Shown here piece by piece: positions 32,823-42,631 of a DNA stretch of 64,000 bases; positions within the stretch are counted from its first letter, which is position 1; each line of letters begins with the position of its first letter. The DNA lies in assembly GCF_020164595.1 (NCBI RefSeq), contig NZ_JAIQZE010000004.1, positions 1 to 64,000 of the forward strand, given 5' to 3'. Origin of the DNA: Psychroflexus longus. GTDB taxonomy: Bacteria > Bacteroidota > Bacteroidia > Flavobacteriales > Flavobacteriaceae. The position numbers and the translations under genes were made by a program. The notes under the pieces are model-generated. The model saw only the letters and a list, made by a program, of their open reading frames with translations. It was not told where the DNA came from and did no database searches.

Positions 32823-34172
32823 ATGACTAAAATGCATACAAAATCTCAAGAGCTCCTTGACAGGAGAAAAAATATAGTCGCCAATGGTGTTGGGGTTTTT
32901 AATACAGCCACTGTAAGTGATGCAAAAGGAGCAATTATAACCGACGTTGATGGAAATGAGTTAATTGATTTTGCAGGTGGAATCGGTGTGGTTAATGCGG
33001 GTCATTGTCCTGCTCCTGTAGTCAAAGCAATACGCGAACAAGCTGGTAAATATTTGCACACCAGTTTCAATGTCGTTACCTATGAGCCATATATCGAATT
33101 ATGTGAAGAACTTGCAGAAATCCTTCCTCACGGTGATCATACGAAGGTCATGCTCATAAGTACTGGCGCTGAAGCTGTAGAGAATGCAATCAAAATTGCT
33201 AGACAAGCTACACAACGACCAGCAGTATTATGTTTTAGCGAAGCTTATCACGGTAGAACATTAATGGGAATGACTTTAACAAGTAAAGTGAATTACAAAT
33301 TTTCTTGTGGTCCATTCGCTCCAGAAGTTTATAGATTGCCATTTCCAAATTTCTATAAAAATGCAGGAAATCTTTCTATGGATGAATTTGTGGAAAACGA
33401 GTTGAGAAATCTCCGTGAAAGTGCCAAGACTTTGGTTGACATCAATACTGTAGCAGCTATTATTGTTGAACCAATACAAGGGGAAGGTGGTTTTAATCCT
33501 ATTCCGCAAAAATACCTCGAGGGTTTGCGAAAGTTTTGTGACGAATATGGCGTGATGTTGATTTGTGATGAAATCCAAAGTGGTTTTTGTAGAACCGGAC
33601 ACTGGGCTAGCTGGCAATACTACGGTGTACAACCAGATCTAAGCACCTACGCCAAATCTATGGGGTCTGGATTACCAATTGCAGCAGTCGTTGGTAAAGC
33701 TAAAATTATGGACGCTGCATTACCTGGAACCATAGGTGGAACCTATATTGGCAGTCCAGTTTGTTGTGCTGCTTCTTTAGCAACCATAAAATATATGAAA
33801 GAAATAAATCTTAATGAAAGAGCCATACATATTGGCCAAATCGTAATGCAGCGCATGAAAGATTTGCAAGAAGAGGTTTCAGAAATTGGAGAGGTAAGAG
33901 GAATTGGAGCCATGATTGGTATCGAATTTATTAAAGATGAAAATCCTAATTCTCCAAATACTGAACTTTGCGATCAAATTGTTAAAGGCTGTGCAAACGA
34001 TGGCCTTATACTTTTAAGTGCAGGTACCTATAAAAATGTGATCCGGATACTTTCCCCTCTAGTCATAACTGATGACGAATTAAATAAAGGCCTGGATATT
34101 TTAGAAAAGCATATTTTGAAAAATACCCGGAGCACAACTCAAAAAGTCTTGAGTTGGTTCAAAAAAAATTAA
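32823..34172 (+). CDS. Class III aminotransferase, GABA transaminase-like
   Basis: A PLP-dependent omega-aminotransferase of 449 residues, closest in motif content to 4-aminobutyrate-2-oxoglutarate transaminases. FAGGIGVVNAGHC lies near the N-terminus, STGAEAVENAIK binds the cofactor phosphate, LICDEIQSGFCRTG holds the PLP-contacting Asp, and K278 (TYAKSMGSG) forms the Schiff base. It would convert a terminal primary amine to an aldehyde. It opens the seven-gene cluster, which also contains a decarboxylase able to supply an amine and a semialdehyde dehydrogenase able to take the product. The true substrate need not be GABA. Confidence 0.88.
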   Translation: MTKMHTKSQELLDRRKNIVANGVGVFNTATVSDAKGAIITDVDGNELIDFAGGIGVVNAGHCPAPVVKAIREQAGKYLHTSFNVVTYEPYIELCEELAEILPHGDHTKVMLISTGAEAVENAIKIARQATQRPAVLCFSEAYHGRTLMGMTLTSKVNYKFSCGPFAPEVYRLPFPNFYKNAGNLSMDEFVENELRNLRESAKTLVDINTVAAIIVEPIQGEGGFNPIPQKYLEGLRKFCDEYGVMLICDEIQSGFCRTGHWASWQYYGVQPDLSTYAKSMGSGLPIAAVVGKAKIMDAALPGTIGGTYIGSPVCCAASLATIKYMKEINLNERAIHIGQIVMQRMKDLQEEVSEIGEVRGIGAMIGIEFIKDENPNSPNTELCDQIVKGCANDGLILLSAGTYKNVIRILSPLVITDDELNKGLDILEKHILKNTRSTTQKVLSWFKKN

Positions 34173-34233
34173 TAACAATATAATAAACTGGTTATTCATA
34201 ATGAATAGCTACTCACAATTAATAAATCAATAA

Positions 34234-35172
34234 ATGAGACCATTTGCAATAGCAGGAATACAAATGAAAGTTTCAGCGGTTAATTCTAATGTAGAATTGA
34301 TGAAGTTGAAACTAGATATAACAATGAGCCTTTATCCATGGGTAGAAATGGTAGTTTTTAGCGAGTTATGTGGTTACGGACCTCTTACTCATACAGCAAC
34401 AGAAATACCAGGATCGTTTGAGGAAGAAATGCAGGCTGCAGCAAAAAAGCACGGCATTTGGTTACTACCAGGGACCATTTTTGAAAAGAGTGAAGGGCAT
34501 ATTTACAATACAGCAACGGTAATCAATCCACAAGGTGAAGTTGTAACTAGATACAGAAAAATGTTCCCCTTTTACCCTTACGAAGTTGGCGTAACACCAG
34601 GTTCTGGATTTTGCGTATTTGATGTACCCGGAGTCGCGAAATTTGGTCTATCCGTTTGTTACGACATGTGGTTTCCAGAAACAGTAAGGACTTTGGCAGT
34701 TATGGGAGCCGAAGTAATTATTCACCCTACAATGACTGGAACAATAGATCGTGATATTGAACTTTCTATAGTTCGTGCGATGGCAGCTTGCAATCAATGC
34801 TATTTCTTTGATGTCAATGGGCTGGAATCCGGAGGTAATGGAAAATCTCTGGTTTGTGGACCAGATGGACGAGTCATTTATCAAGCTGAAGGAAACGAAG
34901 AGATTTTCCCTATAGAGTTAAATATAGAACGCGTTAAGCGAAGCCGAGAATTAGGTGTCCTTAGGTTAGGACAACCTCTAAAAAGTTTCAGAGACCATAT
35001 TGGTGAATTTAATATTTATCAACAAGGTGTTCAATTGCCTTATTTGGATTCGTTAGGACCTTTAATTAAGCCTACAAAAATGGATACTTTAGCAAAACTG
35101 AAGTTGCAAGAACACGAATACGAGAAGAATAATCCTATACAATCACAGGGATATAAAGGATTTTCAAAATAA
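34234..35172 (+). CDS. Carbon-nitrogen hydrolase (nitrilase superfamily amidase)
   Basis: A 312-residue amidase-fold enzyme with the complete triad E44 (FSELCGYGP), K109 (RYRKMFPF) and C142 (SVCYDMWFPE). The CYDMWFPE form resembles amidases and N-carbamoyl-amine hydrolases rather than true nitrilases. It could release ammonia or a carbamoyl or acyl group from an amine intermediate made by the cluster. It follows the transaminase gene by 61 bases and precedes a VOC gene by 15, so it is very likely co-transcribed. Confidence 0.85.
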   Translation: MRPFAIAGIQMKVSAVNSNVELMKLKLDITMSLYPWVEMVVFSELCGYGPLTHTATEIPGSFEEEMQAAAKKHGIWLLPGTIFEKSEGHIYNTATVINPQGEVVTRYRKMFPFYPYEVGVTPGSGFCVFDVPGVAKFGLSVCYDMWFPETVRTLAVMGAEVIIHPTMTGTIDRDIELSIVRAMAACNQCYFFDVNGLESGGNGKSLVCGPDGRVIYQAEGNEEIFPIELNIERVKRSRELGVLRLGQPLKSFRDHIGEFNIYQQGVQLPYLDSLGPLIKPTKMDTLAKLKLQEHEYEKNNPIQSQGYKGFSK

Positions 35173-35187
35173 TAAAAAACAATAGAT

Positions 35188-35592
35188 ATGGGCGGTACAG
35201 CACCGAAACACAAGAAAAAAGAAAGTATGAAAGATGCAGTGAGCTGGTTTGAAATACCTGCGCTTAATTTTCAACAGTCAGTCAATTTTTACAATCAAAT
35301 TTTTGGTATCGATATGGAAACCAAACTTGATGATAATTATGCAATGGCATTTTTTCCTGTAAAAAACGGTGTTGGAGGTTCCATAGTCGCTGGACCGGGG
35401 TCAACTCCAGGTGAGGCGGGTCCTTTGGTATATCTTAATGCAGGTGAGGATTTGAATCCAGTTCTTAATCAAGTAGAGCTAGCTGGTGGTCGAATTGTTA
35501 TGCCAAAGACTTTTATAAGTGATGATGCTGGATACTTTGCTATTTTTATAGATCCAGAAGGAAATAAGTTAGCTCTGCATTCAAGTAATTAA
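35188..35592 (+). CDS. VOC (glyoxalase/bleomycin-resistance fold) protein
   Basis: A 134-residue single-module VOC protein. The paired beta-alpha-beta-beta-beta halves are recognisable from VSWFEIPALNFQQSVNFYNQIFGI and the late FAIFIDPEGNKLALHS, whose E is a usual metal ligand. Members of this fold include lyases, isomerases, dioxygenases and binding proteins, so no reaction can be assigned. It lies 15 bases after the amidase gene and 3 bases before the decarboxylase gene. A basic N-terminus (MGGTAPKHKKKES) precedes the fold. An internal ATG at 35227 is an alternative start. Confidence 0.75.
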   Translation: MGGTAPKHKKKESMKDAVSWFEIPALNFQQSVNFYNQIFGIDMETKLDDNYAMAFFPVKNGVGGSIVAGPGSTPGEAGPLVYLNAGEDLNPVLNQVELAGGRIVMPKTFISDDAGYFAIFIDPEGNKLALHSSN

Positions 35593-35595
35593 ACT

Positions 35596-38343
35596 ATGAT
35601 AAAAAACAAGCAAAAGAGTTCGAGTCATTATAATATCAATCAATTAAGGTTAGAATCATGGAATGAGCTTAAAAGTGAATGTTCCCATTTGGAAACTTTA
35701 AAACGAAATACTCCTGAAAATAAAAAGCAAAAGGAATTTGTTAAATCCCTTTTTAAAAAACTTGAAACTGTTGAAAGTTATTTTGCATTACCAGGGATTT
35801 CTAAAATGGGAATGCTTCAAGATATGCTCGAAAGGAACGAGTTTACATCTTTAGCACATAAAATTATTGAAATTACTAAGTTGCTGGTAAGTGATAGATA
35901 CCGAAGCAATCCAGATGTTTTTGATGATGATGATACGAATGGTGAGTTGATTGAGAATTCTGGTAATAGTGATGAAAAAAGCAAAAATTATTTTGAAGTA
36001 TTATTTGTAGAGGACATCTCTATAAAAGAGGAACTAAAATTAAAGTCAGATTTAAATGAAGTATCCACTGAAAACGATGAATTTGATTATAAAATCATTG
36101 TTCAAAGAAGTTTTCAAGATGCATTGATTGCCTTGTATTTCAACAGTAATATTCAAGCAGTAGTCATTCGTTACGCACCTCCTTTTAGGTCAAAAAAAAT
36201 CAGATCGGTTATAGAACCCTTTATACAAAATGTGTTAAGCTTGGACATGGCTTCCAAGCCTGAAAGTGAACTTGGTCCTTTACTCGGTCGGCTTGTGAAA
36301 AAATTCAGACCCGAATTGGATACCTATTACGTAACCGATACATCGCTTGGAAATTTAAAAGATAATACTTTAAAAACCTTTAATCGAATATTTTACAGAG
36401 CAGAAGATGTTCAGGAATTGCATCTAACGATACTAAGGGGTATCTACGAACGTTACCAAACTCCATTTTTCACAGCTGTAAAAGAATACAGTAAAAAACC
36501 GACGGGCGTTTTTCACGCTATGCCTATTTCACGAGGAAATTCAGTTTTTAAATCCAGATGGATCAATGATTTCGGAAAGTTTTATGGCCGAAACATGTTT
36601 TTGGCAGAAACCTCTTCTACTAAAGGAGGATTGGATTCTCTTTTGCAACCTACGGGGACTCTAAAAAAAGCACAAGAAATGGCAAGTGACGCCTATGGCT
36701 CGCTCAATACTTTCTTTGTTACCAATGGAACGTCAACTTCCAATAAAATTGTTGTGCAAGCGCTGGTGAAGCCTGGTGATGTTATTTTGATCGACAGAGA
36801 TTGTCATAAATCTCATCATTACGGACTCGTTTTGGCTGGTGCATATCCAGTTTATCTGGATTCATATCCTATCGAGAAATACTCTATGTACGGTGCCGTT
36901 CCTTTGGAACAGATGAAAGAAAAATTACTTCAACTTAAAGAAGCTGGCCGGCTTAATCTGGTTAAGATGTTATTGTTGACCAATTGTACGTTTGATGGGT
37001 TAGTTTATAACGTAGAAAAAGTCATGGAAGAAATTCTTGCGATCAAACCTGATATGATTTTTCTTTGGGATGAAGCCTGGTTTGCTTTTGCCGGATTCAC
37101 ATACAATTATAAGCAAAGATCGGGAATGTTTGTGGCCAGTAAACTTCATAAGAAATACAAAAGCTCAAAATATAGAATAGAATACGAAGAACACATTAAG
37201 AGTCTTAAGAAAGGAGAAATACCTAAACTTCCAGACCCAGATCAAGTTCGAATACGTGTCTATTCTACTCAAAGTACACATAAAACCTTAAGCAGTTTTA
37301 GGCAAGGGTCTATGATTCATGTTTGGGACGAAGATTTTAGAAAGAAAAGTCAGAACACTTTTATGGAAGCTTATATGACTCACAGTTCTACCTCTCCAAA
37401 TTACCAGATTTTAGCATCGCTAGACGCTGGAAGAAGGCAGGTTCAATTTGAAGGTTACGAGCTTGTTGAAAAGAGCATTGAACTGGCGATGGTTTTAAGG
37501 GCTAAGATCAATGATCACCCAAAACTGAATAAATACTTTGATGTTTTGACTGTAGGTGATTTTATTCCTGACAAATACAGAGCATCTGGTTTAGCAGAAT
37601 ATTACAAACCCAACGTTGGCTGGAACAGAATGGAAACGGCTTGGAAAGAGGATGAGTTTGTGTTAGATCCTACCAAAGTCACCTTGCATATAGGAAAAAC
37701 AGGAGTTGATGGCGATACCTTTAAGAATAAGTATCTCATGGATAAGTTTAGTATTCAAATCAATAAAACGTCAAGGAATACGGTTTTATTCATGACCAAT
37801 ATTGGAACCACGAGAAGTAGTATAACCTATCTTTATAATGCATTGCTGAAAATTGCAGATGAGTTGGATGCCGAGCAGTTATCTCATTCTTCAAAAGAAC
37901 AGACTATCTTAAAAAATAGAGTAAACTCCCTAATACAAGATTTCCCACCATTGCCAGACTTTAGTTACTTTCATAGTTCATTTCAGGCAGTTCCTGGTGT
38001 ACCGGGGGGGAATATTAGAGGAGCATTTACTTTGGCTTATGATGAGGAAAATTATGAATATGTTCCACTTGAGGAATGTTTACCATCCATGAGTGAAGGT
38101 AGAACTCTAGTTGCTTCTTCATTTATTATACCATATCCTCCTGGATTTCCAGTACTCGTTCCTGGTCAGGTTGTAAGTGAGGAAATCATTCATTTCTTAA
38201 CAGCTTTAGATGTTTCTGAAATTCACGGCTACCAACCTGAATTGGGACTACGTGTGTTCAAGGATAACATTTTGAACAGACAAAAAACAGTGTCTTCTAT
38301 GGGAAGCAATGGAAGTTTCAAAAAAAAGAATTTAACTGAATAA
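35596..38343 (+). CDS. Orn/Lys/Arg decarboxylase family PLP enzyme, long form
   Basis: A 915-residue fold-type I decarboxylase. The core matches E. coli LdcI/AdiA-type enzymes: VTNGTSTSNKIV, IDRDCHKSHHYGL with the PLP-stacking His, LWDEAWFAFAG with the cofactor Asp, K563 in STQSTHKTLSSFRQGSMIH, and the C-terminal LPYPPG-like IPYPPGFPVLVPG. It is about 160-200 residues longer than the E. coli enzymes. There is a divergent N-terminal region (1-300) and an insertion of about 30 basic residues before the PLP lysine (around SKLHKKYKSSKYRIEYEEH). It likely decarboxylates a basic amino acid, but which one is unknown. It is tightly packed with its neighbours. Confidence 0.88.
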   Translation: MIKNKQKSSSHYNINQLRLESWNELKSECSHLETLKRNTPENKKQKEFVKSLFKKLETVESYFALPGISKMGMLQDMLERNEFTSLAHKIIEITKLLVSDRYRSNPDVFDDDDTNGELIENSGNSDEKSKNYFEVLFVEDISIKEELKLKSDLNEVSTENDEFDYKIIVQRSFQDALIALYFNSNIQAVVIRYAPPFRSKKIRSVIEPFIQNVLSLDMASKPESELGPLLGRLVKKFRPELDTYYVTDTSLGNLKDNTLKTFNRIFYRAEDVQELHLTILRGIYERYQTPFFTAVKEYSKKPTGVFHAMPISRGNSVFKSRWINDFGKFYGRNMFLAETSSTKGGLDSLLQPTGTLKKAQEMASDAYGSLNTFFVTNGTSTSNKIVVQALVKPGDVILIDRDCHKSHHYGLVLAGAYPVYLDSYPIEKYSMYGAVPLEQMKEKLLQLKEAGRLNLVKMLLLTNCTFDGLVYNVEKVMEEILAIKPDMIFLWDEAWFAFAGFTYNYKQRSGMFVASKLHKKYKSSKYRIEYEEHIKSLKKGEIPKLPDPDQVRIRVYSTQSTHKTLSSFRQGSMIHVWDEDFRKKSQNTFMEAYMTHSSTSPNYQILASLDAGRRQVQFEGYELVEKSIELAMVLRAKINDHPKLNKYFDVLTVGDFIPDKYRASGLAEYYKPNVGWNRMETAWKEDEFVLDPTKVTLHIGKTGVDGDTFKNKYLMDKFSIQINKTSRNTVLFMTNIGTTRSSITYLYNALLKIADELDAEQLSHSSKEQTILKNRVNSLIQDFPPLPDFSYFHSSFQAVPGVPGGNIRGAFTLAYDEENYEYVPLEECLPSMSEGRTLVASSFIIPYPPGFPVLVPGQVVSEEIIHFLTALDVSEIHGYQPELGLRVFKDNILNRQKTVSSMGSNGSFKKKNLTE

Positions 38344-38350
38344 AAATATT

Positions 38351-39997
38351 ATGGATTCAAACGATAAAAATACATCAACAAATAAAGAAGATCAAACCCC
38401 TAAACATGCTACTGTTACAGGAAAGGATGAGACAAAAATTCCCCGCCGGGGAAAGTCAAATAAAACCAAAAAAGTATCTGTAGCCAAAAAATCTGGGGCT
38501 AAACCTATAGCTACTAACATACCTAAAAAGCGGGGAAGACCTAAAAAAGGAGAGTTGAAAGGAGTTTCAGATATCCGTAGGGCCTTTCATAAAAATGAAG
38601 AACCACTTTATTTTATAAGTGCTACCAATTTTAATCTACTTGGTGCAGATGAATGGATCAAAGGTTTTCGATTTATCACTTATATTGAATGTTTTGATGG
38701 TCAACATCCCAACGTATTTTCCCCTAAAAATGAAATTCCACATGATGATTTTGAAGGGATAGAAGACATCAATAATTATTTGCTTCAGCATCCAGAAGTT
38801 CAAGACTATATTAAAACACGATCTGTTGATGGAAGAGCCGGCAAAGCGATGTTCCTCATGTTTAATGAAGAAACGGAGCGCCTGGCAGAAAAACTGGGTT
38901 TAGAAATCATGTTTCCTAAGGCAGAAATGCGAACTTTTCTAGACAATAAAGTCAATACCAATCGTATTGCAGAAAAAGCAGGAGTCGCGTGTGTTCCTTA
39001 CGTTCTTTCCAAGGTGAATGATTATCAGCATTTAAGTGAAATCTCTAAACATCTAGGTCATCAACTGGTAATACAAACTCCTTTTGGAGATTCCGGGCAT
39101 ACCACCTTCTTTATATCTAATGAAGAAGAATATGATGAATATGCTGAAGAAATTGAAGCTGAAGAGGAAGTGAAAATCATGAAGCGTATCCGTTGTAAAG
39201 GAACTGCTATTGAAGCCTGTGTTACTCGCCACGGAACTATTGTTGCTCCTCTGATGACCGAATTGGTAGGATTTGAAGAGCTGACACCTTACGAAGGAGG
39301 ATGGTGTGGTAATGAAATCTATCCGGATGCGTTTACACCAGAACTAAGAAAAAAAGCAGCAGAATTTACTCAGCTTTTTGGAAATCAATTGCGTGAAGAA
39401 GGTTATAAAGGCTACTTTGAACTTGACTTTTTAATCGATCAGGACAATGGAGAAATCTATTTAGGAGAATTGAATCCAAGAGTCACTGGAGCGAGTTCAA
39501 TTACAAATCATGCTGTATTTGCACTAGCTGATGCTCCATTATTCGTATTTCACATTTTAGAGTGGATGAATTTAGATTACGCTTTAGATGTTGAAGAAAT
39601 CAATAAGCGTTGGGCTAATCAAGACAATATTGATGGCTGGAGCCAACTGATTGTAAAACATACAACCGATTCGATAGAATATGTTACCGAATCAGCAAAA
39701 TCTGGTATTTGGAGATTGTACGATACTGGTCATATTCAATTTGACAGAATGGATACCCATAGACGTGCTGTCCAAAATGAAGGGGAAGCCTTTTTTATGA
39801 GAATTGCAAAAAAAGGAGATTACCTTTATGAAGGAGCAGACATGGGGATTTTGGTAACCCGAGGTCGAATGATGACAGACGATTTCAAACTAAATGATAG
39901 AGCAAAAGCTTGGATAAAAGCGATCCGTAATCAATTTTCTTCGGTTATGGTAGAAGATAAGCGAAAGTCAAATTTATCCGGATCCCTTACAAAATAA
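38351..39997 (+). CDS. ATP-grasp ligase with N-terminal AT-hook tail
   Basis: A 548-residue ATP-grasp protein. From about residue 75 it shows a biotin-carboxylase-like ATP-grasp fold: DNKVNTNRIAEKAGV, the QLVIQTPFGDSGHTTFF nucleotide loop, and YFELDFLIDQDNGEIYLGELNPRVTGAS with metal-binding E and N. No biotin-carrier or transcarboxylase gene is present, so amide-bond ligation is more plausible than carboxylation. Residues 1-75 are a basic, low-complexity tail containing a classic AT-hook, PKKRGRPKKGE (58-68), which binds DNA minor grooves in other proteins and is unusual on a metabolic ligase. It starts 7 bases after the decarboxylase gene. Confidence 0.82.
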   Translation: MDSNDKNTSTNKEDQTPKHATVTGKDETKIPRRGKSNKTKKVSVAKKSGAKPIATNIPKKRGRPKKGELKGVSDIRRAFHKNEEPLYFISATNFNLLGADEWIKGFRFITYIECFDGQHPNVFSPKNEIPHDDFEGIEDINNYLLQHPEVQDYIKTRSVDGRAGKAMFLMFNEETERLAEKLGLEIMFPKAEMRTFLDNKVNTNRIAEKAGVACVPYVLSKVNDYQHLSEISKHLGHQLVIQTPFGDSGHTTFFISNEEEYDEYAEEIEAEEEVKIMKRIRCKGTAIEACVTRHGTIVAPLMTELVGFEELTPYEGGWCGNEIYPDAFTPELRKKAAEFTQLFGNQLREEGYKGYFELDFLIDQDNGEIYLGELNPRVTGASSITNHAVFALADAPLFVFHILEWMNLDYALDVEEINKRWANQDNIDGWSQLIVKHTTDSIEYVTESAKSGIWRLYDTGHIQFDRMDTHRRAVQNEGEAFFMRIAKKGDYLYEGADMGILVTRGRMMTDDFKLNDRAKAWIKAIRNQFSSVMVEDKRKSNLSGSLTK

Positions 39998-40000
39998 TTT

Positions 40001-40034
40001 TTAAGCCTGTCGATATTTTTGTTGATAGGCTTAA
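40001..40034 (+). terminator. Possible internal terminator or processing hairpin
   Basis: TTAAGCCTGTCGA (40001-40013) and TTGATAGGCTTAA (40022-40034) pair over 13 positions with two G-U wobbles. The following bases are only moderately T-rich. It lies just after the ATP-grasp stop codon and could reduce expression of the last two cluster genes or stabilise the upstream mRNA. Confidence 0.5.
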
Positions 40035-40059
40035 TTGTATTAATATTTTAAATCTCTAT

Positions 40060-41202
40060 ATGCAGATTAATTTTAAGACCATTTCAGAACCTAGTTTACC
40101 AGGCTTAAAGTGGCAAAACTTGTTCTTTACGCATTGGGAGGCTTATAAAAAGTGGTTAATCGAAAATGAAAAAGAAGTTCCAACTTCAGATTTAAAAACT
40201 TCTCAATCAGCTCTCAAGACATACATGCCCGAATCGTGGGACACTTATGAGCGGCTTTGTCAACTTGCAGATACAGATGAGTTGGCAGCCAAATTTCTGA
40301 CGGGTTATCAGCCGCCATTTTACGTCAGTGGTTGTTCAAATGCAATATTAAAAGGTGATGATTTTCAGCTTGTTCGAAATTATGATCATCATCCAGACTT
40401 GTTTGAAGGTGTTCAAATACTTACAAAATGGAACCAGAAAAGGGTTATTGCAGTTAGTGATTGTCTGATTGGTGTCCTTGACGGGATCAATGAAGATGGA
40501 TTAGTAGTTTCCTTAACTTTTGGGGGTAGAAAAATTACAGGACAAGGTTTTGGAATTCCTTTTATTTTAAGATATATCCTTGAGTTTTGCTCTGATGTGG
40601 AAGAGGCGATTGAAGTTCTAATCAGAATTCCTTCCCATATGGCTTATAACGTGAGTATCGCTGATAAGTCGGGGAGCTATAAAACTGTGAGAGTGGCACC
40701 TGGAGAAAAAGCAGTTATTACAAATTCAGCTTACACGACCAACCATCAAAAGAAAGTGGACTGGCCAGAGAATGCTAGATTTAACAAAACAATTGAACGT
40801 TCTCTATTTTTAAGTCACCTGTTGGAAGAACAAGATCTATCAACAGAAAATTTAGTCTCTGCCTTTCTTAGGAAACCTCTTTATAATGATCTTTTCAGAG
40901 AAGGTTTTGGCACTTTATTTACCGCGTCATATTTTCCAAAATTGGGAGAAGTGGACTTGCATTGGCCCAATAAAAAAATAAGGCAAAGTTTTGATAATTT
41001 TGAAGAGAAGGATGAAATCATCACCCTCCAACAGAGAAGGAAAAAGCGATCCAAAAATAATCAGTTTTCAATTCCTTATCAGGGTTATACTGCCAAAACT
41101 ATAACCTATTCTAACCCTATTCTGAATAAAGCAGTTTCTAAAAAGCCTAAAGAAATTACAAACGAGTTTTTAAAAGAAGTTTGGTCAATTACAAAATCTT
41201 GA
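40060..41202 (+). CDS. C45-family Ntn hydrolase/acyltransferase-like protein
   Basis: A 380-residue protein of the peptidase C45 family (isopenicillin N acyltransferase/Tan-like). The presumed autoprocessing site is G91-C92 in YVSGCSNAIL, after which C92 would be the N-terminal nucleophile. NYDHHP, GVLDGINEDGLVVSLTFGG and ITNSAYTT are further family blocks. Known relatives hydrolyse or transfer small-molecule amides, for example beta-alanyl amides. In this cluster it could cleave the amide formed by the ATP-grasp enzyme. There is no signal peptide, so it is probably cytoplasmic. It follows a hairpin and a 62-base gap. Confidence 0.8.
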   Translation: MQINFKTISEPSLPGLKWQNLFFTHWEAYKKWLIENEKEVPTSDLKTSQSALKTYMPESWDTYERLCQLADTDELAAKFLTGYQPPFYVSGCSNAILKGDDFQLVRNYDHHPDLFEGVQILTKWNQKRVIAVSDCLIGVLDGINEDGLVVSLTFGGRKITGQGFGIPFILRYILEFCSDVEEAIEVLIRIPSHMAYNVSIADKSGSYKTVRVAPGEKAVITNSAYTTNHQKKVDWPENARFNKTIERSLFLSHLLEEQDLSTENLVSAFLRKPLYNDLFREGFGTLFTASYFPKLGEVDLHWPNKKIRQSFDNFEEKDEIITLQQRRKKRSKNNQFSIPYQGYTAKTITYSNPILNKAVSKKPKEITNEFLKEVWSITKS

Positions 41203-41272
41203 TCATGTCTTTTAATAAGAAGACTTTATATTCAATTTCTATATTGAATGAATCTCATAAAAATCTATACAA

Positions 41273-42631
41273 ATGAAATTTCAAAGTAAAAATCCCTTCA
41301 ATGGTAACCATATTGCCGAATATACTGCACTTACTTCTGAAGAGCTCCATGGAAAACTCAAAGCTTCAGCAGAAGCATTTAAACATTGGAAAACAACTCC
41401 TTTAACTGAAAGAACTAATCTTCTTAAAAAGACAGGACAGATACTTAGAGATAATGTAGATGAATACGCTGAGATTATAACTTTAGAAATGGGTAAACCT
41501 ATTTCAGAATCAAAGTCTGAAGTCAATAAATGTGCTTGGGTGTGCGATTATTATGCAGAACACGCTGAAGAGTTTCTTGCTATCGAAAGCATTGAAACTG
41601 ATGCTTCTAAAAGTTTTGTTCGTCACGACCCGATTGGAGCAGTTTTCGCCGTGATGCCCTGGAATTTTCCATTTTGGCAAGTATTTCGTTTTGCCGCACC
41701 TACCTTGACAGCGGGAAATACGGGACTATTAAAACATGCCCCAAATGTCTTTGGCTGTGCTCAAAAAATAGAAGAAATCTTTTTAAAAGCAGGTTACCCT
41801 AAAGGTGTTTTTCAGAATTTGATTGTTCATCACGATGAAACTGAAAAAATTGTGTCACATGATGCTGTTCGGGCTATAACTTTAACTGGCAGTGAAGCTG
41901 CAGGCTCTGCTGTTTCACAAATTGCTAGCAAATACATCAAAAAAAGTTTGCTGGAACTTGGAGGGAGCAATTCGTTTATCGTTTTAGATGATTCTGACTT
42001 AGATCAAGCCGTAAATACGGCAGTTCAGGCTAGAATGATGAATAGTGGTCAAAGCTGTATTGCAGCTAAACGTTTTATGGTGATGGATTCCATTTATGAT
42101 GAGTTTGTATCTAGGTTTATTGAAAAAGCAAAACAATTAAAAGTGGGAGATCCCATTTCAGAAGATACTCAAATTGGAACTTTGGCACGTAAAGATTTGG
42201 CAGATCAACTTCAAAAGCAAGTCCAGGACTCCATTAAACAAGGTGCTAAATTATTACTTGGAGGGAAACAAAATGAATGCTTCCATGAGCCCACAGTTTT
42301 AGGGGAAGTAACCTCTGAAATGTCTGCTTTTAAGGAAGAAACCTTTGGTCCACTGGCTGCAATGGTCAAGGTAAAATCTGCAGATGAGGCTTTTGAATTA
42401 GCTGAACAATCTAAGTTTGGACTTGGATTAAGTGTGTTTACTAAAAATATTGATAAAGCTTTGAGTTATGCTGAGAAAGTCAGCGACGGTGCATTTTTCA
42501 TTAATGAGTTGGTAAAATCAGATCCCCGTTTGCCTTTTGGTGGAACAAAAACTTCTGGTTTTGGTCGTGAATTAGCTAAAGATGGTATAATGGAATTTAT
42601 CAATCGTAAAACAGTTTATGTAAAAGCATAA
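41273..42631 (+). CDS. Succinate-semialdehyde dehydrogenase-like aldehyde dehydrogenase
   Basis: A 452-residue NAD(P)-dependent aldehyde dehydrogenase. The catalytic C262 (MNSGQSCIAAKR) and general base E228 (LLELGGSN) are present, with the oxyanion PWNFPFW motif. Its length and sequence fit the short succinate-semialdehyde dehydrogenase group. It would oxidise the semialdehyde made by the transaminase at the other end of the cluster. It is the last clear cluster gene; yjjX follows after a 38-base gap. Confidence 0.9.
   Translation: MKFQSKNPFNGNHIAEYTALTSEELHGKLKASAEAFKHWKTTPLTERTNLLKKTGQILRDNVDEYAEIITLEMGKPISESKSEVNKCAWVCDYYAEHAEEFLAIESIETDASKSFVRHDPIGAVFAVMPWNFPFWQVFRFAAPTLTAGNTGLLKHAPNVFGCAQKIEEIFLKAGYPKGVFQNLIVHHDETEKIVSHDAVRAITLTGSEAAGSAVSQIASKYIKKSLLELGGSNSFIVLDDSDLDQAVNTAVQARMMNSGQSCIAAKRFMVMDSIYDEFVSRFIEKAKQLKVGDPISEDTQIGTLARKDLADQLQKQVQDSIKQGAKLLLGGKQNECFHEPTVLGEVTSEMSAFKEETFGPLAAMVKVKSADEAFELAEQSKFGLGLSVFTKNIDKALSYAEKVSDGAFFINELVKSDPRLPFGGTKTSGFGRELAKDGIMEFINRKTVYVKA

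What the first reader, a model, noticed from the sequence alone, without database searches (positions are those of the whole stretch)
32823..42631. Seven-gene decarboxylase/ATP-grasp/Ntn-hydrolase cluster of unknown pathway
Seen: seven co-directional genes, several separated by 3-15 bases, encode a GABA-type transaminase, a nitrilase-family amidase, a VOC protein, an Orn/Lys/Arg decarboxylase, an ATP-grasp enzyme, a C45 Ntn hydrolase and a succinate-semialdehyde-type dehydrogenase. Known: the gamma-glutamyl-putrescine (Puu) route and the protected side-chain steps of butirosin synthesis both attach an amine to an acyl group, process it and then cut the amide. Inference: this cluster could be an analogous but non-homologous route. 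The decarboxylase makes a diamine or agmatine-like amine, the ATP-grasp enzyme ligates it, transaminase and dehydrogenase convert the free end, and the amidase or C45 enzyme releases the product. Biosynthesis of an acylated polyamine is the alternative.
Basis: partly seen in the sequence, partly recalled or inferred. Interest (0 to 1): 0.78.

Follow-up and report, generated by a model that had tools for sequence, protein, structure and literature searches.

The report
Conserved GABA-linked seven-gene bacterial cluster
Seven neighbouring genes in a salt-loving bacterium form a conserved, apparently undescribed pathway that most likely makes GABA, couples it to something with ATP, cuts the product again and burns the GABA, rather than making lysine- or arginine-type amines as first suggested.

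Summary
Seven intact co-directional genes (T transaminase, N nitrilase, V VOC, D decarboxylase, A ATP-grasp, C C45 hydrolase, S dehydrogenase) lie at 32823-42631. They are a true unit: 79 of 80 related genome loci keep the order T-N-V-D-A-C-S, and in 27 genomes of the genus the transaminase occurs only where A does. D keeps the PLP residues of Orn/Lys/Arg decarboxylases, but the Glu that (from recall) binds the substrate's distal amine in CadA/SpeF is Asn in 84 of 84 D proteins, an Arg appears nearby in 83 of 84, and PGE is PGQ in 84 of 84. D without A nearby sits beside an aspartate/alanine antiporter gene in 5 of 7 loci read. T keeps the five GABA-transaminase positions checked; one relative has an enzyme over the SSADH cut-off in the S slot; in one plasmid cluster type D is replaced by arginine-to-GABA genes. 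So the hub is most likely GABA from glutamate. A, C and N then probably join GABA to an unknown partner and release it, like the insect black/ebony/tan cycle. That step is inference: the 50 best fold matches of A are carboxylases and PurK. No description was found in the paper searches made.

The parts
32823..34172 (+). T: class-III aminotransferase, GABA transaminase type
   Evidence: Best NCBIfam match 4-aminobutyrate transaminase PRK06918, 514.2 bits, below its cut-off 676. Closest solved chains are GABA transaminases. I54, R145, E221, K278 and R408 conserved in 55 of 55 relatives.
34234..35172 (+). N: carbon-nitrogen hydrolase, no named subfamily
   Evidence: PF00795, 113.2 bits; no NCBIfam model over cut-off. 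Triad E44 60/60, K109 60/60, C142 59/60 with one gap.
35188..35592 (+). V: small VOC/glyoxalase-fold protein, role unknown
   Evidence: PF00903, 30.4 bits. With D and A it forms the smallest version of the unit.
35596..38343 (+). D: PLP decarboxylase of the OKR superfamily, Rv2531c-like branch, predicted acidic (glutamate) substrate
   Evidence: Match to PDB 9n0n over residues 13-898, E 7.8e-242. H404, D492 and K563 84/84; N723 84/84; R727 83/84; Q858 84/84.
38351..39997 (+). A: ATP-grasp enzyme annotated as biotin carboxylase (NF005096)
   Evidence: 825.7 bits over cut-off 684. K200, E357, D359, E373, N375 and R377 conserved 80/80. Model pLDDT 78.1; residues 1-65 below 50.
40001..40034 (+). 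terminator-like hairpin between A and C, 15 pairs, weak T tail; possible transcript boundary or attenuator
   Evidence: Consensus scan only; 17 terminator-like sites in the region against 7.1 (sd 2.7) in shuffles.
40060..41202 (+). C: C45 family Ntn acyltransferase/hydrolase; predicted nucleophile Cys92 after Gly91
   Evidence: NF040521, 152.7 bits over cut-off 85. C92, R106 and D109 conserved 56/56. Model nearest to isopenicillin N acyltransferase 2x1c, E 8.0e-13, TM 0.62/0.66.
41273..42631 (+). S: succinate-semialdehyde-type aldehyde dehydrogenase
   Evidence: Closest solved chain succinate-semialdehyde dehydrogenase 4it9, E 1.7e-127; below the NCBIfam cut-offs. C262 and E228 conserved 58/58.

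Best explanation
The cluster is a GABA-centred conjugation and recovery module. D decarboxylates glutamate to GABA (inferred). A uses ATP to join GABA to an unknown partner, most likely as an amide (inferred). C, a predicted self-cleaving Cys hydrolase, and N, a nitrilase-family amidase, release GABA from that or a related amide (inferred from family). T and S turn GABA into succinate semialdehyde and succinate (supported by family, residues and one independent replacement). V-D-A is the synthetic core; N, C, T and S are the recovery half, present in most but not all loci. Shown: the genes, their conservation as a unit, catalytic residues and contexts. Inferred: every substrate. Component estimates: GABA/succinate semialdehyde as hub 0.65; D acts on an acidic amino acid, glutamate first, 0.55; A makes a GABA amide 0.35.
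For: (1) T keeps five GABA-transaminase positions in 55/55 (roles recalled). S is nearest to solved succinate-semialdehyde dehydrogenases, and in L098 the S slot holds a 34%-identical enzyme over the SSADH TIGR01780 cut-off (723.6 over 646.35). (2) D: CadA E526/SpeF E532 is Asn in 84/84, Arg727 in 83/84, PGE to PGQ in 84/84, PLP residues kept. (3) D without A nearby lies directly beside aspT in L137, L138, L144, L159 and L160, 5 of the 7 such loci read; a Glu/Leu/Phe/Val or glutamate dehydrogenase lies upstream of D-A in 3 of 6 annotated rhizobial D-A loci, L133, L161, L162. (4) In L130, L135 and L141 N, A and C occur without D, with genes for an arginine-to-GABA route; their A proteins are nested within D-linked ones in a midpoint-rooted tree. 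(5) In 27 genus genomes T is found in 8, each with A on the same contig; a ninth has V-D-A only. (6) C belongs to the family of insect Tan, which cleaves beta-alanyl amides, and carnosine synthase, titled an ATP-grasp protein, accepts GABA.
Against: The 50 fold matches listed for A (of 581 with E <= 0.001) are carboxylases and PurK, no peptide ligase. C was not found in 7 of 11 whole genomes searched for it, 4 of which hold most of the other genes, so it is not essential. The PDB relative of D has Ile where D has Arg727, and Rv2531c's activity is unknown. PF00282 decarboxylases are over cut-off in 26 of 27 genus genomes, so D need not be the GABA source. Of 7 low-identity S-slot enzymes tested only L098's passes an SSADH cut-off, and 13 of 58 S proteins lack R139. 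Two of seven A-free D loci (L132, L136) show no aspT. The arginine-route evidence is a single cluster type. The MocR regulators beside two Cupriavidus clusters pass the PdxR cut-off, not GabR.
Confidence: 0.4

Rival explanations
1. Reversed order: A joins the side-chain carboxyl of glutamate to an amine, D decarboxylates this gamma-glutamyl amide to a GABA amide, and N or C frees GABA for T and S.
For: D has a neutral Asn instead of the basic-substrate Glu, which would suit an amide side chain; D precedes A in 78 of 80 loci; N and C are amide hydrolases by family.
Against: D occurs without A beside aspT and N-A-C occurs without D in L130, L135, L141, L142, so each seems to work without the other.
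Confidence: 0.18
2. One reading: D makes cadaverine, putrescine or agmatine, A acylates it, T and S oxidise the free end, and N or C releases the product, as in the gamma-glutamyl-putrescine pathway.
For: D belongs to the OKR superfamily (PF01276, 259.6 bits); T and S resemble PuuE and Sad.
Against: Pocket residues changed in 84/84; T and S look like omega-amino acid and semialdehyde-acid enzymes; antiporter and glutamate-gene neighbours; no PuuA, PuuB or PuuD family member among the ten window proteins scanned.
Confidence: 0.12
3. The same design with beta-alanine: D makes beta-alanine from aspartate, and T and S handle it through malonate semialdehyde.
For: aspT and an aspartate 4-decarboxylase gene lie near D in L137 and L160; the insect cycle uses beta-alanine.
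Against: The S slot of L098 holds an enzyme over the SSADH cut-off; the arginine route in L130 ends in GABA (pathway recalled).
Confidence: 0.1
4. A is a carboxylating ATP-grasp enzyme (biotin carboxylase or PurK-like), so no amide conjugate is made.
For: All 50 listed Foldseek matches are carboxylases or PurK; all 25 profile hits in the PDB at E <= 0.01 are biotin-dependent carboxylases.
Against: The biotin carboxylase stretch EMNTRIQVEHPV aligns with ELNPRVTGASSI in A; no carrier or carboxyltransferase gene among the seven recurring families; sequence similarity is at most 35 bits.
Confidence: 0.12

Closest known systems
GABA shunt (glutamate decarboxylase, GABA transaminase, succinate-semialdehyde dehydrogenase)
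   Same: T and S by family and residues; D predicted to supply GABA
   Different: D is from the OKR superfamily, not the GadB family; A, C, N and V have no place in the shunt
Insect black/ebony/tan beta-alanine cycle
   Same: decarboxylase, ATP-dependent conjugation (predicted here), C45 hydrolase
   Different: Ebony is titled a nonribosomal peptide synthetase (reference), A is ATP-grasp; GABA rather than beta-alanine predicted; the partner is unknown
Carnosine synthase CARNS1 (carnosine, homocarnosine)
   Same: ATP-grasp enzyme that can take GABA
   Different: A was not compared with CARNS1 directly; its only ligase-type sequence matches are weak D-Ala-D-Ala ligase ones and no peptide ligase is among its 50 listed fold matches
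Gamma-glutamyl-putrescine (Puu) pathway
   Same: transaminase and dehydrogenase resemble PuuE and Sad; amide logic
   Different: no PuuA, PuuB or PuuD family member found; D's pocket is not that of a diamine maker
5-aminovalerate (DavBATD) lysine pathway (recalled)
   Same: nitrilase amidase, class-III transaminase and semialdehyde dehydrogenase in one set
   Different: no lysine monooxygenase; contains D, A and C
Rv2531c, probable amino acid decarboxylase (PDB 9n0o)
   Same: nearly full-length homologue of D
   Different: activity unknown in print; Ile in place of Arg727

Membership tests
OKR (Orn/Lys/Arg) decarboxylase superfamily | PF01276 fold with PLP lysine, stacking His and Asp | tested here: met
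   259.6 bits; H404, D492, K563 in 84/84
OKR enzymes acting on lysine or ornithine | acid at CadA E526/SpeF E532 and the PGE motif (AdiA, for arginine, has Thr at the first place) | tested here: not met
   Asn 84/84 and PGQ 84/84; the role of E526/E532 is recalled, not from a call
GABA shunt | GABA transaminase | tested here: met
   Residues 55/55 and nearest solved chains; score below the NCBIfam cut-offs
GABA shunt | succinate-semialdehyde dehydrogenase | tested here: inconclusive
   Window S nearest to solved SSADH but below NCBIfam cut-offs; the L098 enzyme in the same slot is over TIGR01780
GABA shunt | glutamate decarboxylase activity | not testable with these tools
   Inferred from pocket and neighbours only
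Puu pathway | PuuA (glutamine synthetase fold), PuuB oxidase, PuuD hydrolase | tested here: not met
   None in the Pfam scan of the seven genes and three neighbours; the rest of the genome was not searched for them
5-aminovalerate (Dav) pathway | lysine 2-monooxygenase | tested here: not met
   Not among the seven recurring families or the ten window proteins scanned; genome not searched
Biotin carboxylase | carboxylation motif and partner carrier/transferase genes | tested here: not met
   Motif differs in the alignment; no partner gene among the recurring families
Peptidase C45 (IAT/Tan) | PF03417 with Gly-Cys autocleavage site | tested here: met
   Cys92 56/56; IAT is the top fold match; cleavage itself not tested
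Black/ebony/tan-like cycle | ATP-dependent conjugation of an omega-amino acid by A | not testable with these tools
   A's substrates unknown; the fold search does not favour a peptide ligase

The most novel reading that the evidence does not exclude
A widespread, undescribed bacterial GABA-conjugate cycle: an OKR-superfamily enzyme that decarboxylates glutamate (an acidic-substrate branch), an ATP-grasp GABA ligase and a C45 hydrolase that together parallel the insect black/ebony/tan cycle, found across Bacteroidota and relatives and beside nitrogenase genes on rhizobial plasmids.
Probability: 0.3. Interest if true: 0.82.

Novelty: new variant of a known kind. Interest (0 to 1): 0.62.

Why it matters
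If right, it assigns a function to three proteins now carried under generic or misleading names (biotin carboxylase, Orn/Lys/Arg decarboxylase, C45 peptidase), shows how an OKR decarboxylase can move from basic to acidic substrates, and predicts a new GABA-containing metabolite in many bacteria, rhizobia included. It also gives a lead for the unknown activity of the solved Rv2531c-type decarboxylases. It is directly testable with purified enzymes.

Tried and rejected
Rejected: agmatine, putrescine or cadaverine route (pocket and partner evidence); Dav pathway (no monooxygenase seen); N as N-carbamoylputrescine amidase (80.1 bits, cut-off 410); biotin carboxylase as A's real role (motif). Led nowhere: PDB profile searches for A and C gave only remote matches. 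Nine paper searches were answered; none listed a description of the cluster, and only looked for it or its parts. The promoter scan was at chance level (36 found, 39.7 expected). PF00282 did not track the cluster.

Some genomes appear twice under a G handle and a named locus (for example G301 and L048, G053 and L108). The D alignment used the window D, the 71 D proteins and 12 plasmid D proteins; the 9 loci with D fragments and the frame-broken D of L139 were left out, and L159-L162 were read later. I read contexts for 21 plasmid loci (D matches in 398 records, A matches in 32): 10 with D and A, 7 with D and no A nearby, 4 with A and no D. L131, L134, L141, L142 and L143 carry no annotation; parts of L131, L134 and L142 were scanned. 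A first A tree had a frame slip for L128 and was replaced (44 A proteins).
Full report
OBSERVATION. The window's genome (G000) is in the same genus as G301, whose contig length equals that of Psychroflexus lacisalsi contig NZ_JAIQYZ010000001.1, so the organism is a Psychroflexus by inference.

CONSERVATION. On the strand of A, A is in 80, D in 78, N 64, T 62, S 60, C 56 and V 55; 35 hold all seven, and 79 of 80 keep the order T-N-V-D-A-C-S. L122, the exception, has only 53% of S at 23% identity upstream; L092 has a C copy on the other strand upstream. Clustering of ORFs in 83 loci (these 80 plus L041, L042, L044) gave only these seven families at 53 or more loci; fragments of D reach 9 and unrelated families at most 8. 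Pairwise distances of the seven families correlate at r 0.62 to 0.89, which fits co-inheritance but is not corrected for species phylogeny. The unit is patchy: in 296 genomes of the phylum A passes its cut-off in 4 and D matches in 5, the fifth with D at a contig edge. In 27 genomes of the genus, 8 hold T (E <= 1e-60), each with A on the same contig; a ninth, G315, has A with D and V only; and G319 has a decayed remnant in which S is still nearly full length.

MODULES. V-D-A alone occurs in L044, L121, L126 and L127. In the genomes of the last three, C was not found and the best N matches were 26-37% identical. All four loci have a divergent protein of one family; the L121 copy matches a urea-transporter model at 96.4 bits, below the cut-off 274.6. 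C was sought in 11 whole genomes: found in 3, a weak 29% match in 1, none in 7, of which L063, L065, L072 and L083 lie in genomes that keep T-N-D-A (gene sets). So V-D-A is the smallest unit seen, and C and the T/N/S set are separable from it.

DECARBOXYLASE. D matches PDB 9n0n over residues 13-898 (E 7.8e-242) and 9n0o likewise. A review lists 9N0O as Rv2531c, activity not clarified (passages of PMC12910592; the structure paper was not held). Aligned with E. coli AdiA, CadA and SpeF, 84 of 84 D proteins (window included; 79 linked to A, 5 not) keep the stacking His, the Asp and the PLP Lys. At CadA E526/SpeF E532 all 84 have Asn; 83 of 84 have Arg at position 727 (AdiA Asp, CadA Pro, SpeF Leu); 84 of 84 read PGQ instead of PGE. 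That E526/E532 binds the distal amine is recalled, not shown here. Loss of an acid and gain of an Arg point to an acidic or at least non-basic substrate. The PDB relative has Ile at the Arg place, which weakens this for the wider family.

NEIGHBOURS OF D AND A ELSEWHERE. Of 21 plasmid loci read, seven hold D without A nearby. In five, D is directly beside aspT, annotated aspartate-alanine antiporter: L137, L138, L144, L159, L160 (the L137 protein is over its model cut-off). L132 and L136 show no aspT. Of six annotated rhizobial D-A loci, L133, L161 and L162 have a Glu/Leu/Phe/Val or glutamate dehydrogenase upstream, L129 and L140 stand beside nifHDKEN, and L139 has neither. Roseobacter L128 has gabT and an FMN glutamate synthase near N-D-A-C. 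In Shinella L130 and Roseateles sp. XES5 L135, N, A and C occur without D in the locus, with a racemase, a D-amino acid dehydrogenase, 5-guanidino-2-oxopentanoate decarboxylase, an aldehyde dehydrogenase and an agmatinase-family enzyme (L130 scored: decarboxylase 737 over 500, agmatinase 212.3 over 174.3, D-amino acid dehydrogenase 473.5 over 383, racemase below its cut-off). Unannotated Sinorhizobium sp. RAC02 L141 has the same twelve genes. All three are over 90% identical gene by gene, so they are one cluster type, not three independent cases. These enzymes lead from arginine to GABA by recalled biochemistry. In the midpoint-rooted A tree the three form a clade nested within D-linked ones. 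L142 has N-A-C with a peptide-type ABC importer and no D. I read this as D and the arginine route being interchangeable suppliers of a common product, GABA.

T AND S. T's closest solved relatives are GABA transaminases, and five positions are invariant in 55 of 55. S is closest to succinate-semialdehyde dehydrogenases but under the NCBIfam cut-offs. In L098 the same slot holds a 34%-identical dehydrogenase over the SSADH cut-off: an independent replacement with the same predicted role. Six other low-identity S-slot enzymes score best to a lactaldehyde dehydrogenase model, below cut-off, which is neutral.

A, C AND N. The catalytic positions checked are conserved. A has no close solved relative. 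Its model (pLDDT 78.1) is nearest to biotin carboxylases and PurK (50 matches listed of 581 with E <= 0.001; TM 0.43-0.54 over the query, up to 0.67 over the target), so the fold does not single out an amide ligase. The biotin carboxylase motif is not kept. C's model (pLDDT 85.5) is nearest to isopenicillin N acyltransferase, ranks 1-7. The same Pfam family includes insect Tan, described as self-cleaving at Gly-Cys and hydrolysing carcinine to histamine and beta-alanine (passages of PMC10194958 and PMC5555718). Carnosine synthase makes homocarnosine from GABA and histidine, and a cited title calls it an ATP-grasp protein (passages of PMC7367687). These precedents make the conjugate-and-release reading reasonable, but nothing here shows the partner molecule.

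CONCLUSION. A real, conserved unit, not found described in the papers searched. GABA as its hub is supported; glutamate as D's substrate is likely; the conjugate made by A and cut by C and N is a proposal.

Noticed in passing
L129 and L140 (Rhizobium leguminosarum plasmids): D-A-C with a dipeptide-type ABC importer lies directly beside nifHDKEN on plasmids typed conjugative, with an amidase after the importer in L129; suggests a role in nodules.
   Followed up: partly
L044 14728-16703; L121 4268-6481; L126 4042-6249; L127 4309-6519: A protein of one family is divergent to V-D-A in all four V-D-A-only loci; the L121 copy weakly matches a urea transporter and peptidoglycan hydrolase models.
   Followed up: partly
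L045 9138-11770 (G319): Decayed copy of the cluster in another genome of the genus: fragments of T, A and C, while S is nearly full length.
   Followed up: no
window 40001-40034: Hairpin of 15 pairs with a weak T tail between A and C may split the cluster into two transcripts.
   Followed up: no
L106 8414-9898; L111 8387-9829; L073 13454-14899: An amino acid permease family (L073 copy scored, below cut-offs) sits between D and A (L106, L111) or after S (L073).
   Followed up: partly
L120 5835-9873; L125 5791-9841: The same two large genes of unknown role are inserted between D and A in both loci.
   Followed up: no
L062 11589-14071; L064 11657-14038: Two adjacent copies of C in two Brumimicrobium genomes.
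   Followed up: no
L142 11609-13213; L131 4088-5665: MocR-type regulators beside the cluster in Cupriavidus; best model rhizopine MocR (below cut-off), over the cut-off only for PdxR, below it for GabR.
   Followed up: partly
window 38351-38550: A carries a lysine-rich N-terminal extension, low confidence in the model and absent from the shorter relatives.
   Followed up: no
L135 and L130: Roseateles sp. XES5, filed as a betaproteobacterium but marked UNVERIFIED_ORG, carries twelve genes over 90% identical to those of Shinella, an alphaproteobacterium; possible misassignment of the record or recent transfer.
   Followed up: no
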